From positions 1-64,000 of the forward strand of contig DAIDJO010000043.1 of the NCBI GenBank assembly GCA_027451345.1: 64,000 nt of DNA, written 5' to 3'. This DNA is from Solirubrobacterales bacterium (lineage in GTDB: Bacteria > Actinomycetota > Thermoleophilia > Solirubrobacterales > Solirubrobacteraceae). Every line of letters begins with the position of its first letter. The first letter of the stretch is position 1. The position numbers and the translations under genes were made by a program. Positions 3,716-24,470 of the stretch are shown in pieces. The notes under the pieces are model-generated. The model worked only from the letters and a program-made list of their open reading frames with translations, was not told the origin of the DNA and did no database searches.

Positions 3716-4187
3716 TCAGCTGGCCGGCGCCCGGCGGCGGATCGGCGTCCTGCGGGAACCGCTCGGCGGCGAGGTCGGCCAGCTGGTTGAGCTGCCGGGC
3801 CAGATCGCGGGCGTCGGCCACGATCCGCTCCCGTTCGCCCCAGATGCGATCGGTGTCGAGGTCGAGGTCGTGCAGCCGCTGCTCGGCCACCGCCACGACG
3901 TGCGCGGTCTCGCGCTCGGCCTGATCGCGGTGCTCCCGGGCCTCGCGCTCCGCGCCCGCGACGATCTCCTCCGCCGTGTCGTGCGCCTGCCTGAGCACGT
4001 CGGCCTCCTCCTCGCCGACGCGCGCGAGCGCGTCGCGGACGGCGGCATCGGGCGTCTGCTGCTGTGCCTGGAGCTCACGAACCTGGCGCTGCAACTGGCT
4101 CACGTAGGCGTCGACCTCGTCGCGGTCGTACCCGCGCCGGGAGAGCCGGAACAGCCCCTCTCCGCTCCTCGTCAGCTCCTCACTCAT
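3702..4187 (-). CDS. DivIVA-domain protein
   Basis: MSEELTRSGEGLFRLSRRGYDRDEVDAYVSQLQRQV... N-terminal DivIVA signature and coiled coil; 14-bp overlap with the MBL gene. Confidence 0.75.
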   Translation of the reverse strand: MSEELTRSGEGLFRLSRRGYDRDEVDAYVSQLQRQVRELQAQQQTPDAAVRDALARVGEEEADVLRQAHDTAEEIVAGAEREAREHRDQAERETAHVVAVAEQRLHDLDLDTDRIWGERERIVADARDLARQLNQLADLAAERFPQDADPPPGAGQLNASH

Positions 4188-4289
4188 CGCGCGAAGGCTA
4201 TCCGCTGCGCCCGCGGAATGGAACGGCCGGCCCGGCGCCCCCGTTGGGCCGTCGGCCGCCTGCGGATCCGTCCATAGAATCCTGGGTAG

Positions 4290-5315
4290 GTGATCATGGT
4301 GTCCGAACCCCTGACCGACGGCCATGGACGCCGCATCGCGGACCTGCGCGTGTCCGTCACGGACCGGTGCAACTTCCGCTGCCAGTACTGCATGCCGGCC
4401 GAGGGGTTGCCCTGGCTCGAGCGTGACGAGGTGCTGCGCTTCGAGGAGATCACGCGCCTCGTCGCCCTGTTCGCCCGTCTGGGCGTGCACGACGTGCGCC
4501 TGACGGGCGGCGAGCCGCTCGTGCGGCGGGACTTCCCGCGTCTGGTGGGGATGCTCGCCGCCCTCGACGGCATCGAGGACCTCGCCATCACCACCAACGG
4601 CTTCCTGCTCGAGCGCGATGCCGGCGCGCTCGTCGCGGCCTGCGAGACCAGAGAGCGCCGGGCGCGAGGGATCCGCTTCAACGTCTCGATCGACTCGCTG
4701 CAGCGCGACCGGTTCTACGCGCTGACCCGGCGCGACGCGCTCGATCAGGTCCTGCGCGGCCTCGCCCGACTCGCGGAATATCCGCAGGCGCACCCGATCA
4801 AGGTCAACGCCGTCGCCCTGCGCGGGGTCACCGAGGACGAGGTGCCGGCCTTTGTCGAACTCGCCCGCCACAGCGCCTACGAGGTTCGCTTCATCGAGTT
4901 CATGCCCCTCGACGCCGATCGCGCGTGGAGCTCCGACCAGGTGCTGACGGGCGCCGAGCTCCACGCGATGATCGACGCCCTGCACCCGCTCGAGCCGACC
5001 GAGCGCGAGCCGGGCGCCACCGCCCGGGTGTATCGGTTCGCCGACGGCCACGGCCGGATCGGCTTCATCAACCCGGTGTCCGAGCCCTTCTGCGGTGACT
5101 GCAACCGGATCCGCCTGACCGCCGACGGGCGCCTGCGCACCTGCCTGTTCTCCCTGCGGGAGACGGACCTCCGAGGGCCGCTGCGGGACGGCGCCGACGA
5201 CGACCAGCTCGCGCAGCTCATTCGCGACGCCGTCTGGCGCAAGGAGCTCAAGCACCGGATCGGCGAGCCCGGCTTCGTGCAGCCGGCCCGGACGATGTCC
5301 GCCATCGGCGGCTGA
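4290..5315 (+). CDS. moaA: GTP 3',8-cyclase
   Basis: CNFRCQYCMPAEG radical-SAM motif, second CGDCNRIRLTADGRLRTC cluster. Confidence 0.95.
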   Translation: MIMVSEPLTDGHGRRIADLRVSVTDRCNFRCQYCMPAEGLPWLERDEVLRFEEITRLVALFARLGVHDVRLTGGEPLVRRDFPRLVGMLAALDGIEDLAITTNGFLLERDAGALVAACETRERRARGIRFNVSIDSLQRDRFYALTRRDALDQVLRGLARLAEYPQAHPIKVNAVALRGVTEDEVPAFVELARHSAYEVRFIEFMPLDADRAWSSDQVLTGAELHAMIDALHPLEPTEREPGATARVYRFADGHGRIGFINPVSEPFCGDCNRIRLTADGRLRTCLFSLRETDLRGPLRDGADDDQLAQLIRDAVWRKELKHRIGEPGFVQPARTMSAIGG

Positions 5316-20926: not shown

Positions 20927-23368
20927 ATGGCCTACGCCGAGCAGACCACCAGATTGCGCGGTCCGATCAACGAGCACGCGACCGCGCTCGCGCACGAATG
21001 GCGTCGCCTGACGCGCGCCGCGACGTTCGTGGCGCTGCTCACCGCGCCCGCCTTCTTCCTCATCCTGCACTCGTCCAACCACCTCAGCCTGGTCGCGTCG
21101 ATCCTCATCACCGCGCTGGCCGTGGTGATGTTCCGCGGGCTCGTGGAGGTCATCGTCCGCCACTTCCTGCCGTGGCCGAGCCTGTTCGGCACCGGGGAAT
21201 CGCTGCGCGAGGAGGACATCGTCGCGCGCCGCCGGCACTGGTTCTGGCTCTCGAAGTACCGCCGCCTGCCGTACTGGGTGCTCGCCATCCTCATCCTGCT
21301 CGCCCTGTTCCAGGCGCTGTTCGCCTTCTCCGGCGTGCACTCGAGCTTCTTCAACCCCTTCCCGGCGCTGCGGGTCCTGTTCCCACCGCAGCAGGCCGCG
21401 CAGTACGCGTCGCTCGCCTTCCAGGTCCCGCTGCTGCTGTTCATCAACATCCTCATCTTCATGGGCCCGTTCGTCTTCATGGCGATCCGCGGGATCCGAA
21501 GCTACGAGCCCGGGGATGCGAGCTGGGGCGTGCGGATCGACGACGTGCGGGGCCAGGCCGAGGCGAAGGAGGAGATCACCCGGGTCATCACGCTCTGGCA
21601 GTCGGGCGAGGAGTTCGAGAAGGCCGGCGGCAAGCGCGAGCGCGGCCTGCTCTTCCTCGGCGCCCCCGGCACCGGCAAGACGATGATCTCCAAGGCGATC
21701 GCGACGAACTTCAACTGCCCGTTCGTGACGATCCCCGGCTCCGGCTTCGCCCAGATGTTCATGGGCATGGACGCGCTGACGGTCCAGATGCTCGCCCACC
21801 GCGCACGCAAGCTCGCCCGCAAATGGGGCGGGCAGTGCATCGTGTTCATCGACGAGATCGATGCGGTCGGGCTGCGCCGGCAGGCGCTCGGAACGTCGAT
21901 GACCGCCGGCACGTCCGCGACCCCCAGCTCGGTCCATGACTTCCTGTTCTTCGGGCCGAACGGCTCGCTCACCCCCAGCGGCGACCTCGTGATCGAGACG
22001 CGCCAGTGGCGGGACCAGCTGTTCGCCGCGCGCGCCGCCGCCGAGACGGCTCCCGGCTCCGCCCCCCTGCTGCAGCGGGTGGCCGCCCGGGTGAACGCGA
22101 TCTTCCCCGGCGGCATGGGGATGGGCTACCAGGGCCAGGCGCTCAACCAGCTGCTCGTGGTGATGGACGGCATGGGCGAGCCGCCGGTCTTCCGCAAGTT
22201 CGTGGTCAACCGGGTCAACACGTTCCTGGACGCGATGTTCGTGCTCCCGCAGCGCATCGGCCGTGTCTCGCTGCGCCTCGCGCCGCCGAAGCCGCGCAAG
22301 GAGGAGATCTACTTCATCGGGGCCTGCAACGTCCCGATCGAGGCGCTCGACCCCGCCCTGACGCGCCCCGGCCGCATGGGCCGCCACATCTGGTTCCGCA
22401 CCCCGACCAAGGACGACCGCAAGGACATCTTCGACCTGTACATGGCGAAGGTGGCGCACGAGCCGGACCTCGACACGGATCGCCGGCGGGACGAGCTCGC
22501 GCGCATCACCGCGGGGTACTCGCCGTCCATGATCGAGCAGGCGTGCTCGATGGCCCTCACCATCGCCCACTCGGAGGGGCGCCACTCCTTCGCCTGGCGG
22601 GACATCGTCGAGGCGATGACGACCGTCGAGTCGGGCACGGCGCAGAACATCGAATACGTCGAAGAGGAGACCCGCGCGGTCGCCATCCACGAGGCGGGCC
22701 ACGCGGCGGCCGGGCACGTGTACCTCGGCAACGACGTGCTCTCCACGCGCCTCTCGATCCGAAAGCGCGGCGGCTCGCTCGGCCATTACCAGTCGATGGA
22801 GAAGGATGAGCGGTTCAGCCACTTCCGGGCCCGTGTGATGGGTGGGCTCGTGATGACGCTCGGCGCGATGGCCGCCGAGCACGTCTTCTACGGCGAGAAC
22901 TCGCAGGGCGTCAGTGGTGACCTGTACAGCGCGACCGCCACGGCGAGCGCGATGGTCGGCATGTGGGGCATGGGACCGGAGGAGGTGCCGATCTCGCTGC
23001 GGCCGAGCCGGCGGCTGGGCCCCGGTGAGCAGCCCGACGCCGCGGACCTGGTGAAGGCGCGGCTGCGGGAGATCGGCGATCAGATCATGAACCGGGCGTC
23101 GGTGGGGTCGGCGCTGATGAGCGACCCGATCGGCAGCGTGCTCTCCAGCCCGGGCAAGCGGGAGGCGGTGGCCCAGCTCCTCGGCCAGGCGTACGTGATG
23201 GCGTACTCCCTGATGGCGACCAACCGCGCGGCGATCGAACGGATCGCGGACGCGCTGATGGAACGCAAGGAGATGCACGGGGACGAGGTCGGCGCGCTGC
23301 TCGACAGCGTCGGACTCGTGCGGCCCGAGGTCAACCTGCTCGACGATCGCACCTGGCCGGCGGTATGA
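20927..23368 (+). CDS. Divergent FtsH-like membrane AAA+ zinc metalloprotease
   Basis: GAPGTGKT Walker A, CIVFIDEIDAVG Walker B, ALDPALTRPGRMGRH SRH, HEAGHAAAGH M41 zinc site; large insertions. Confidence 0.88.
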   Translation: MAYAEQTTRLRGPINEHATALAHEWRRLTRAATFVALLTAPAFFLILHSSNHLSLVASILITALAVVMFRGLVEVIVRHFLPWPSLFGTGESLREEDIVARRRHWFWLSKYRRLPYWVLAILILLALFQALFAFSGVHSSFFNPFPALRVLFPPQQAAQYASLAFQVPLLLFINILIFMGPFVFMAIRGIRSYEPGDASWGVRIDDVRGQAEAKEEITRVITLWQSGEEFEKAGGKRERGLLFLGAPGTGKTMISKAIATNFNCPFVTIPGSGFAQMFMGMDALTVQMLAHRARKLARKWGGQCIVFIDEIDAVGLRRQALGTSMTAGTSATPSSVHDFLFFGPNGSLTPSGDLVIETRQWRDQLFAARAAAETAPGSAPLLQRVAARVNAIFPGGMGMGYQGQALNQLLVVMDGMGEPPVFRKFVVNRVNTFLDAMFVLPQRIGRVSLRLAPPKPRKEEIYFIGACNVPIEALDPALTRPGRMGRHIWFRTPTKDDRKDIFDLYMAKVAHEPDLDTDRRRDELARITAGYSPSMIEQACSMALTIAHSEGRHSFAWRDIVEAMTTVESGTAQNIEYVEEETRAVAIHEAGHAAAGHVYLGNDVLSTRLSIRKRGGSLGHYQSMEKDERFSHFRARVMGGLVMTLGAMAAEHVFYGENSQGVSGDLYSATATASAMVGMWGMGPEEVPISLRPSRRLGPGEQPDAADLVKARLREIGDQIMNRASVGSALMSDPIGSVLSSPGKREAVAQLLGQAYVMAYSLMATNRAAIERIADALMERKEMHGDEVGALLDSVGLVRPEVNLLDDRTWPAV

Positions 23369-24252
23369 CGACCGACAACCCCGCATCGAACGAGCACCAC
23401 CCGCCGATCGGCGGTGCCCCCGCCCTGGGCGCGGGCACCCGAGACCTGCCGCGCCTGCGCTCGCCGCACGCCACGAAGTTCCGCGTCGTCATCGCCGTGC
23501 TCGTCGGGATCGCCGCGGGCGCACTCGCGGTGGCCGTCGTCGTGGCCGCCCGCCAGAGCGGCCCGACGAGGCTCGTGGCCGGGGCGTGGTCGAGCTGGCG
23601 CCCGACGGCCGCCGGCTCCACCGGCGTGCTCGAGATCGCCCAGCACATCGCGCCGTACTACCGGCAGAACGCCACCCAGCAGCTCGATGTGATCACCCCG
23701 ATCGGCCTGTCGCAGCCGAACGCCGCGGGGACGACGACGGGGAACGGGCTGACGGTCGCGGTGAACGAGAGCACCTCGAGCAAGAACCAGTCGCTCGGGC
23801 TGCTCAGCGGGCGCACGATCGCCTACAACGTGTGCGGGCTCGGTTCACGGGACTGCACCCTCGCCGGGACACCGTCGGTCGCCCGCATGCTGCTGCTGCG
23901 CCGGGAGGCGCTCGAGCTGGCCCTCTACACGTTCCGCTACATCGGTGACAGCCAGAACGTCGTGGTCGTGCTGCCGCCGGGCCACACCGTCACCGCGACG
24001 GGCGCCGGGACGCAGGGGGTGACCGTTGCGCTGCTCTTCCTGCGCAGCGAGCTGCAACCCTGGCTGAACGTGCCGCTGTCCCGGACGCTCCAGCAGTACC
24101 CGCCGGACCTGACCCAGCTCGGCGTCTGGAGCAGGAGCCAGGAGGCCGCCTTCGTCGATCAGGTCACGGCGCACGGGCTCTTCTCCTCGCAGGTCGAGGC
24201 GCTGCAGGTGGGAGGAAGCGCGCTCGTGCTGACTCCGCTGCCCGCCCAGTGA
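23365..24252 (+). CDS. Single-TM membrane-anchored hypothetical protein
   Basis: FRVVIAVLVGIAAGALAVAVVVAA TM; ATGA overlap with the FtsH-like gene. Confidence 0.65.
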   Translation: MTTDNPASNEHHPPIGGAPALGAGTRDLPRLRSPHATKFRVVIAVLVGIAAGALAVAVVVAARQSGPTRLVAGAWSSWRPTAAGSTGVLEIAQHIAPYYRQNATQQLDVITPIGLSQPNAAGTTTGNGLTVAVNESTSSKNQSLGLLSGRTIAYNVCGLGSRDCTLAGTPSVARMLLLRREALELALYTFRYIGDSQNVVVVLPPGHTVTATGAGTQGVTVALLFLRSELQPWLNVPLSRTLQQYPPDLTQLGVWSRSQEAAFVDQVTAHGLFSSQVEALQVGGSALVLTPLPAQ

Positions 24253-24470
24253 GCGCCGGGTACCTGCCGCCGTCGCTCTGCCACACCTGCGCGCATCAGC
24301 AGCTCGTGCGCAACTCCCGAGGATCGGTCTTCTCGCTGTGCCGCCGCTCCCGCGCGGAACCGGAGCGCTTCGCTCGCTATCCCCCGCTGCCCGTGCTGCA
24401 ATGTCCGGGTCATGAGCATCGCGGTGACCGCCCTCCACATCACACCGGTCAAGGGCACCCGCGTCCGTAG
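24249..24470 (+). CDS. Small CxxC zinc-ribbon-like conserved hypothetical protein
   Basis: CHTCAHQQLVRNSRGSVFSLC...RYPPLPVLQCPGHE; overlaps stop of upstream gene (GTGA). Confidence 0.55.
   Translation: MSAGYLPPSLCHTCAHQQLVRNSRGSVFSLCRRSRAEPERFARYPPLPVLQCPGHEHRGDRPPHHTGQGHPRP

What the first reader, a model, noticed from the sequence alone, without database searches (positions are those of the whole stretch)
20927..23368. Divergent FtsH-like protease with extra TM segments and large insertions in the AAA+ module
Walker A/B, SRH arginine and HEAGH/GDL zinc ligands are retained. However, about 85-90 residues separate IDEIDAVG from QALNQLLVVMDG, and about 45 residues separate that from the ACNVP/SRH, where canonical FtsH has short loops. 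The N-terminus has about four TM segments rather than two flanking a periplasmic domain. It is probably a separate FtsH subfamily with its own adaptor interface.
Basis: partly seen in the sequence, partly recalled or inferred. Interest (0 to 1): 0.6.

Follow-up and report, generated by a model that had tools for sequence, protein, structure and literature searches.

The report
Divergent FtsH protease with membrane partner
This soil actinobacterium carries, beside two ordinary copies of the membrane protease FtsH, a third very different one that lacks the usual outer domain, has two conserved extra pieces next to its protein-threading motor, and is almost always encoded together with an uncharacterised membrane protein that is probably its working partner.

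Summary
ORF 20927-23368 (813 aa) is an AAA+/M41 protease with all catalytic residues intact. It has 88 residues (E. coli FtsH: 15) between Walker B and helix alpha-3, and 50 (E. coli: 11) between alpha-3 and the sensor-1 strand. It has four predicted TM segments and no periplasmic domain. The genome also has two canonical FtsHs (845 and 741 bits to TIGR01241, cut-off 600; this protein 252). 33 distinct orthologues (51-88% identical, same class) keep both inserts; insert 2 is exactly 50 residues in all. In trees, canonical FtsHs and this clade each fall on one side of a branch with 100% support. Two further clades in other Actinomycetota carry inserts at the same sites.

Of 299 class genomes, 58 have the protease, 58 the partner and 57 both; 56 of those pairs are adjacent. 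Another clade pairs with an unrelated upstream lipoprotein.

Best explanation: an auxiliary two-component membrane AAA+ protease whose outward sensing or adaptor part is a separate co-encoded protein and whose motor is remodelled for particular substrates. Architecture and linkage are shown; mechanism and substrates are inferred. New variant of a known kind.

The parts
20927..23368 (+). Divergent FtsH-like AAA+/M41 membrane protease, 813 aa, no FtsH_ext periplasmic domain
   Evidence: Pfam AAA 8.3e-24 and Peptidase_M41 2.4e-24, no FtsH_ext; TIGR01241 252 bits against cut-off 600; tree
21017..21073 (+). TM1 (residues 31-49)
   Evidence: hydropathy, AF2 helix 16-50
21101..21157 (+). TM2 (residues 59-77)
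   Evidence: hydropathy, AF2 helix 55-80
21278..21334 (+). TM3 (residues 118-136), after an Arg-rich cytoplasmic segment
   Evidence: hydropathy and charges, AF2 helix 91-135
21431..21487 (+). TM4 (residues 169-187), leads into the AAA+ module
   Evidence: hydropathy, AF2 helix 154-189
21659..21682 (+). Walker A GAPGTGKT
21839..21856 (+). Walker B IVFIDE
21872..22135 (+). Insert 1 (residues 316-403, 88 aa against 15 in E. coli FtsH) between Walker B and helix alpha-3, the pore-loop-2 position; conserved F341, G343, G346, G352, D353, E357, W361, R362, F366, R369, P394, G395
   Evidence: 79-96 aa in 34 clade members
22172..22321 (+). Insert 2 (residues 416-465, 50 aa against 11 in E. coli FtsH) between alpha-3 and the sensor-1 strand, the ps1-beta-hairpin position; exactly 50 aa in all 34 clade members; modelled as helix 421-436 plus two short strands
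22364..22387 (+). SRH arginines RPGRMGRH
22688..22702 (+). Zinc site HEAGH
22919..22921 (+). Third zinc ligand D665
   Evidence: invariant in alignment A1
23365..24252 (+). Partner gene, 295 aa: disordered N-tail, one TM (about 41-59), extracytoplasmic domain with W75S.W, C157GLG..C164, RREALELALYTF, LPP; start codon overlaps the protease stop (ATGA)
   Evidence: no Pfam, NCBIfam or PDB relative

Best explanation
The ORF is an active, auxiliary membrane-anchored AAA+ metalloprotease of a distinct FtsH-like clade, and it works together with the bitopic protein encoded directly downstream. Shown by sequence: intact ATPase and zinc sites; four predicted TM segments and no periplasmic domain; two clade-conserved inserts at the pore-loop-2 and pre-sensor-1 positions; near-obligate co-occurrence and overlap with the partner gene. 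Inferred: it forms a hexamer that pulls substrates from the membrane or cytosol through a remodelled channel into the M41 chamber; the partner, with one TM and an extracytoplasmic domain, supplies in trans the outward substrate-selection or regulatory part that canonical FtsH has in cis or receives from HflK/HflC or prohibitin; and it is dispensable and specialised, acting beside the two canonical FtsHs.
For: Catalytic residues invariant across 48 sequences. The genome has two other FtsHs above the NCBIfam cut-off. Orthologues in 58 of 299 class genomes; outside the class only matches of 33-44% identity. Trees: canonical FtsH (E. coli plus 20 actinobacterial proteins) is one side of a branch and clade A is one side of a branch, each 100/100, in a tree restricted to columns filled in at least 90% of rows, which drops most insert columns. 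Insert 2 is exactly 50 aa in 34 of 34 members; insert 1 is 79-96 aa with 15 positions at least 90% conserved. Partner: 57 of 58 protease genomes also have it, 56 of 57 adjacent and co-directional, Fisher p about 3e-59; in all but one of the loci examined the partner starts between -18 and +13 nt of the protease stop (in L017 no start codon close to the stop was picked). Of the exceptions, G290 is split between contigs and G326's protease lies at a contig end. Fold search of the model: FtsH, AFG3L2, Yme1 and Ycf2-FtsHi as best matches. [quoted passage not shown] pore loop 2 between beta-3 and alpha-3). Another insert-bearing clade repeats the pattern with an unrelated lipoprotein upstream in 10 of 12 loci with room.
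Against: No physical or functional link between the two proteins was tested; genomic linkage does not prove a complex. One class genome has a distant partner homologue without the protease, beside an ABC transporter (G327), and one has a second stand-alone partner copy (G308), so the partner family is not strictly bound to the protease. The Fisher value ignores shared ancestry. Insert 1 is modelled with low confidence (pLDDT about 40-70), so its place in the channel rests on topology only. Hexamer, activity and substrates are not tested.
Confidence: 0.62

Rival explanations
1. The partner is a substrate, or an inhibitor titrated by the protease, not an adaptor: the protease degrades or processes the bitopic protein and the pair is a regulatory switch.
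For: Tight overlap and near-obligate co-occurrence would fit a protease-substrate or protease-inhibitor pair; the partner has a long variable, disordered cytoplasmic N-tail (pLDDT under 50 at residues 1-22) of the kind FtsH-type proteases engage.
Against: The most conserved part of the partner is the extracytoplasmic domain and not the cytoplasmic tail, which suits sensing or binding outside.
Confidence: 0.2
2. The protein is an ordinary FtsH with lineage-specific decorations that does the same jobs as FtsH; the partner is a housekeeping neighbour.
For: Full catalytic set kept; FtsH-like fold.
Against: Two canonical FtsHs already present; no FtsH_ext domain; long stem and 100% split from canonical FtsH; patchy distribution; near-obligate pairing with one gene.
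Confidence: 0.1
3. The protein is mainly an unfoldase or membrane-protein extractor (Msp1- or Ycf2-FtsHi-like motor) in which proteolysis is secondary.
For: Ycf2-FtsHi motor chains are among the fold matches; inserts at motor positions could change what is threaded.
Against: Zinc ligands and catalytic glutamate are invariant in all aligned members, unlike inactive FtsHi.
Confidence: 0.08

Closest known systems
Canonical bacterial FtsH (TIGR01241; E. coli FtsH)
   Same: AAA+ with Walker A/B, sensor 1 and SRH arginines; M41 zinc site; membrane anchor before the AAA+ module
   Different: E. coli FtsH has two TMs flanking a periplasmic domain and loops of 15 and 11 aa; here four TMs, no periplasmic domain, 88 and 50 aa; 252 bits against a cut-off of 600
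FtsH-HflK/HflC and m-AAA-prohibitin complexes
   Same: A membrane protease regulated by separate membrane proteins with domains on the far side of the membrane (PMC10850787; PMC12994072)
   Different: HflK/C and prohibitins are SPFH proteins (own knowledge); this partner shows no match to any Pfam family or solved fold, and the protease lacks the periplasmic or IMS domain
Ycf2-FtsHi motor complex of chloroplasts
   Same: Divergent FtsH-type subunits with extra segments, found by fold search
   Different: A hetero-oligomer with inactive FtsHi subunits (own knowledge); here the zinc site is intact
Two further insert-bearing clades found here in other Actinomycetota (clade B, such as L052 and L123 Nonomuraea; clade C, such as L054)
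   Same: Inserts at the same two sites, no periplasmic domain
   Different: 27-31% identity to the window protein; insert 2 is 31-32 aa (B) or 42 aa (C); B has an upstream lipoprotein instead of the downstream bitopic partner

Membership tests
FtsH/M41 AAA+ metalloprotease superfamily | AAA module and M41 peptidase domain in one chain | tested here: met
   Pfam PF00004 8.3e-24, PF01434 2.4e-24
FtsH/M41 AAA+ metalloprotease superfamily | HExxH plus third Asp ligand, Walker A/B, sensor-1 Asn, SRH arginines | tested here: met
   invariant or nearly so in 48 sequences
FtsH/M41 AAA+ metalloprotease superfamily | Hexamer with ATP-dependent proteolysis | not testable with these tools
   needs protein biochemistry
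Canonical FtsH equivalog (TIGR01241) | Score at or above the curated cut-off of 600 bits | tested here: not met
   252 bits; the genome's own canonical copies score 845 and 740
Canonical FtsH equivalog (TIGR01241) | Two TMs flanking a periplasmic FtsH_ext domain | tested here: not met
   four TMs, short outside loops, no FtsH_ext in Pfam
Canonical FtsH equivalog (TIGR01241) | Falls inside the canonical FtsH group in a tree | tested here: not met
   21 canonical FtsHs are one side of a branch with 100/100 support; clade A likewise. Sampling of canonical FtsH: E. coli and actinobacteria only
[quoted passage not shown]
   insert 2 lies there, but the model has a helix and only two 2-residue strands, and the rest of the module is FtsH-like; read as an independent insert

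The most novel reading that the evidence does not exclude
A class of FtsH-type proteases has externalised its periplasmic domain: the motor-protease lost it, gained motor inserts, and took on dedicated separately encoded partner proteins from unrelated families on different lineages (a bitopic protein in the class of the window genome, a lipoprotein in other Actinomycetota), making two-component membrane proteases steered from outside the cytoplasm.
Probability: 0.4. Interest if true: 0.68.

Novelty: new variant of a known kind. Interest (0 to 1): 0.55.

Why it matters
FtsH is the widely conserved membrane protease of bacteria, and how it chooses substrates and is controlled from across the membrane is still poorly understood. 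A natural version in which the outward part seems to be a separate protein, and which sits beside two ordinary FtsHs, would allow motor, protease and selection to be tested apart. It also gives a likely function to a protein family that has no annotation at all, and shows that FtsH-type AAA+ proteases can carry large inserts at two motor positions.

Tried and rejected
Assembly error or frameshift as the source of the inserts: rejected, 33 orthologues including one from a complete genome share them. Single FtsH copy replaced by a divergent one: rejected, two canonical copies present. Homology of the partner to any known family or fold: no support. Homology of the clade A partner and the clade B lipoprotein: no support (hhalign probability 0.3%). 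Small cysteine-rich neighbour (24249-24470) as a third operon member: weak, since it was found in only 18 of 36 loci and on the opposite strand in 12 of those. Promoter and terminator scans: nothing above chance. Literature: no paper on such FtsH-likes or on FtsH in Thermoleophilia found in the held library. Relation of clade A to B and C: unsettled; grouping A with canonical FtsH is not rejected (p-AU 0.375), so the tree shows distinctness and not a single origin for all insert-bearing clades.

Full report
WHAT WAS CHECKED. The ORF at 20927-23368 is open and encodes 813 aa. Pfam gives AAA and Peptidase_M41 and no FtsH periplasmic domain. The NCBIfam FtsH model scores 252 bits against a cut-off of 600. 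ATPase and zinc residues are invariant or nearly so across 48 aligned proteins that include two canonical FtsHs. Hydropathy gives four TM segments and short outside loops, matched by long helices in an AlphaFold2 model (mean pLDDT 81).

OTHER COPIES. The genome (G000, 3.3 Mb, 85% complete) has two further FtsHs on other contigs, with 845 and 741 bits to the FtsH family, so the window protein is an extra one.

ORTHOLOGUES. Orthologues were found in 17 of 61 family, 26 of 151 order and 58 of 299 class genomes (a few matches are cut by contig ends or frame breaks, and the samples overlap) and in named records such as Conexibacter sp. S30A1 and several Solirubrobacterales MAGs. Outside the class the best matches drop to 33-44% identity. 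In 34 distinct clade members (the window protein and 33 orthologues) insert 1 is 79-96 aa with 15 positions at least 90% conserved, and insert 2 is exactly 50 aa in every one. Every genome of the window's genus that was sampled has it (11 of 11); in other genera of the family the distribution is patchy.

OTHER INSERT-BEARING CLADES. Relatives elsewhere in Actinomycetota fall into two further groups, B (about 800 aa) and C (about 650-700 aa), with inserts at the same two sites: insert 1 65-74 aa in B and 28-66 aa in C; insert 2 31-32 aa in B and 42 aa in C. Nonomuraea gerenzanensis belongs to B in the tree; a Thermomicrobium roseum megaplasmid protein has a longer loop at the insert-2 site and a short insert 1.

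TREE. On columns filled in at least 90% of rows, 21 canonical FtsHs form one side of a branch (100/100), as do clade A (100/100) and clade B (100/100); C is weak (85/21) (quick tree). Branches are long. Grouping A with canonical FtsH is not rejected (p-AU 0.375), so the tree shows that A is not nested in canonical FtsH but not how A, B, C and canonical FtsH are ordered. Canonical FtsH was sampled from E. coli and actinobacteria only.

THE PARTNER. The next gene, 23365-24252, overlaps the protease stop (ATGA). Its product has a disordered N-tail, one TM and an extracytoplasmic domain with conserved W75S.W, CGLG..C, RREALELALYTF and LPP motifs. The cysteines are conserved in nearly all 35 aligned members, and one member lacks both. 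There is no Pfam, NCBIfam or PDB match. A confident model (pLDDT 84.6) has no relative in PDB or BFVD. In every clade A locus of the first set with room downstream the gene is present. In 299 class genomes the partner occurs in 58 and the protease in 58, both in 57, with 56 pairs adjacent on one strand. G290 is split between contigs and G326 ends at a contig edge. In a 397-genome phylum sample the partner appears outside the class only as one weak match.

CLADE B PARALLEL. Ten of twelve clade B loci with room carry, directly upstream, a protein with a signal sequence and an invariant lipobox-like cysteine, not detectably related to the clade A partner. A T. roseum membrane-anchored hypothetical lies 12 bp upstream of its protease gene. 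The recurrence of an exported or anchored companion beside proteases that lack a periplasmic domain is why an outsourced outer part is proposed.

MECHANISM. Shown: intact active sites, topology by prediction, conserved inserts, gene linkage. Inferred: hexamer, threading and degradation, partner as outward selector or regulator. Insert 1 replaces the loop between Walker B and alpha-3, which is pore loop 2 in Vps4 (PMC5039278). [quoted passage not shown] that paper notes that in protein translocases this hairpin is positioned away from the channel and may aid recognition or partner binding, so both readings stay open. HflK/C regulate FtsH (PMC10850787) and prohibitins the m-AAA protease (PMC12994072); the analogy is functional and not a membership claim.

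VERDICT. Real, conserved and apparently undescribed. It is a new variant of a known kind, a separate FtsH-like clade with a dedicated partner, not a new kind of machine.

Noticed in passing
window 24249-24470 +: Small cysteine-rich protein (73 aa, LCxxC..RGSxFSLC..YPxLPVLxC), start overlapping the partner stop; no Pfam or NCBIfam match; found next to the partner in 18 of the 36 clade A loci checked, on the same strand in 6 and the opposite strand in 12.
   Followed up: partly
L088, L081, L090, L123 and other clade B loci: Uncharacterised lipoprotein-like gene directly upstream of clade B FtsH-like proteases in 10 of 12 loci with room.
   Followed up: partly
L075 about 3783-4817 -: Distant homologue of the partner without an FtsH-like gene nearby, beside ABC transporter genes (G327).
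   Followed up: partly
L077 about 1662-2423 +: Second, stand-alone copy of the partner in genome G308, which also has the adjacent pair on another contig.
   Followed up: no
L122 4143-6674 +: Thermomicrobium roseum megaplasmid: FtsH-like AAA protease (TRD_RS13160) 12 bp after a membrane-anchored hypothetical (TRD_RS13165), with a longer loop at the insert-2 site.
   Followed up: partly
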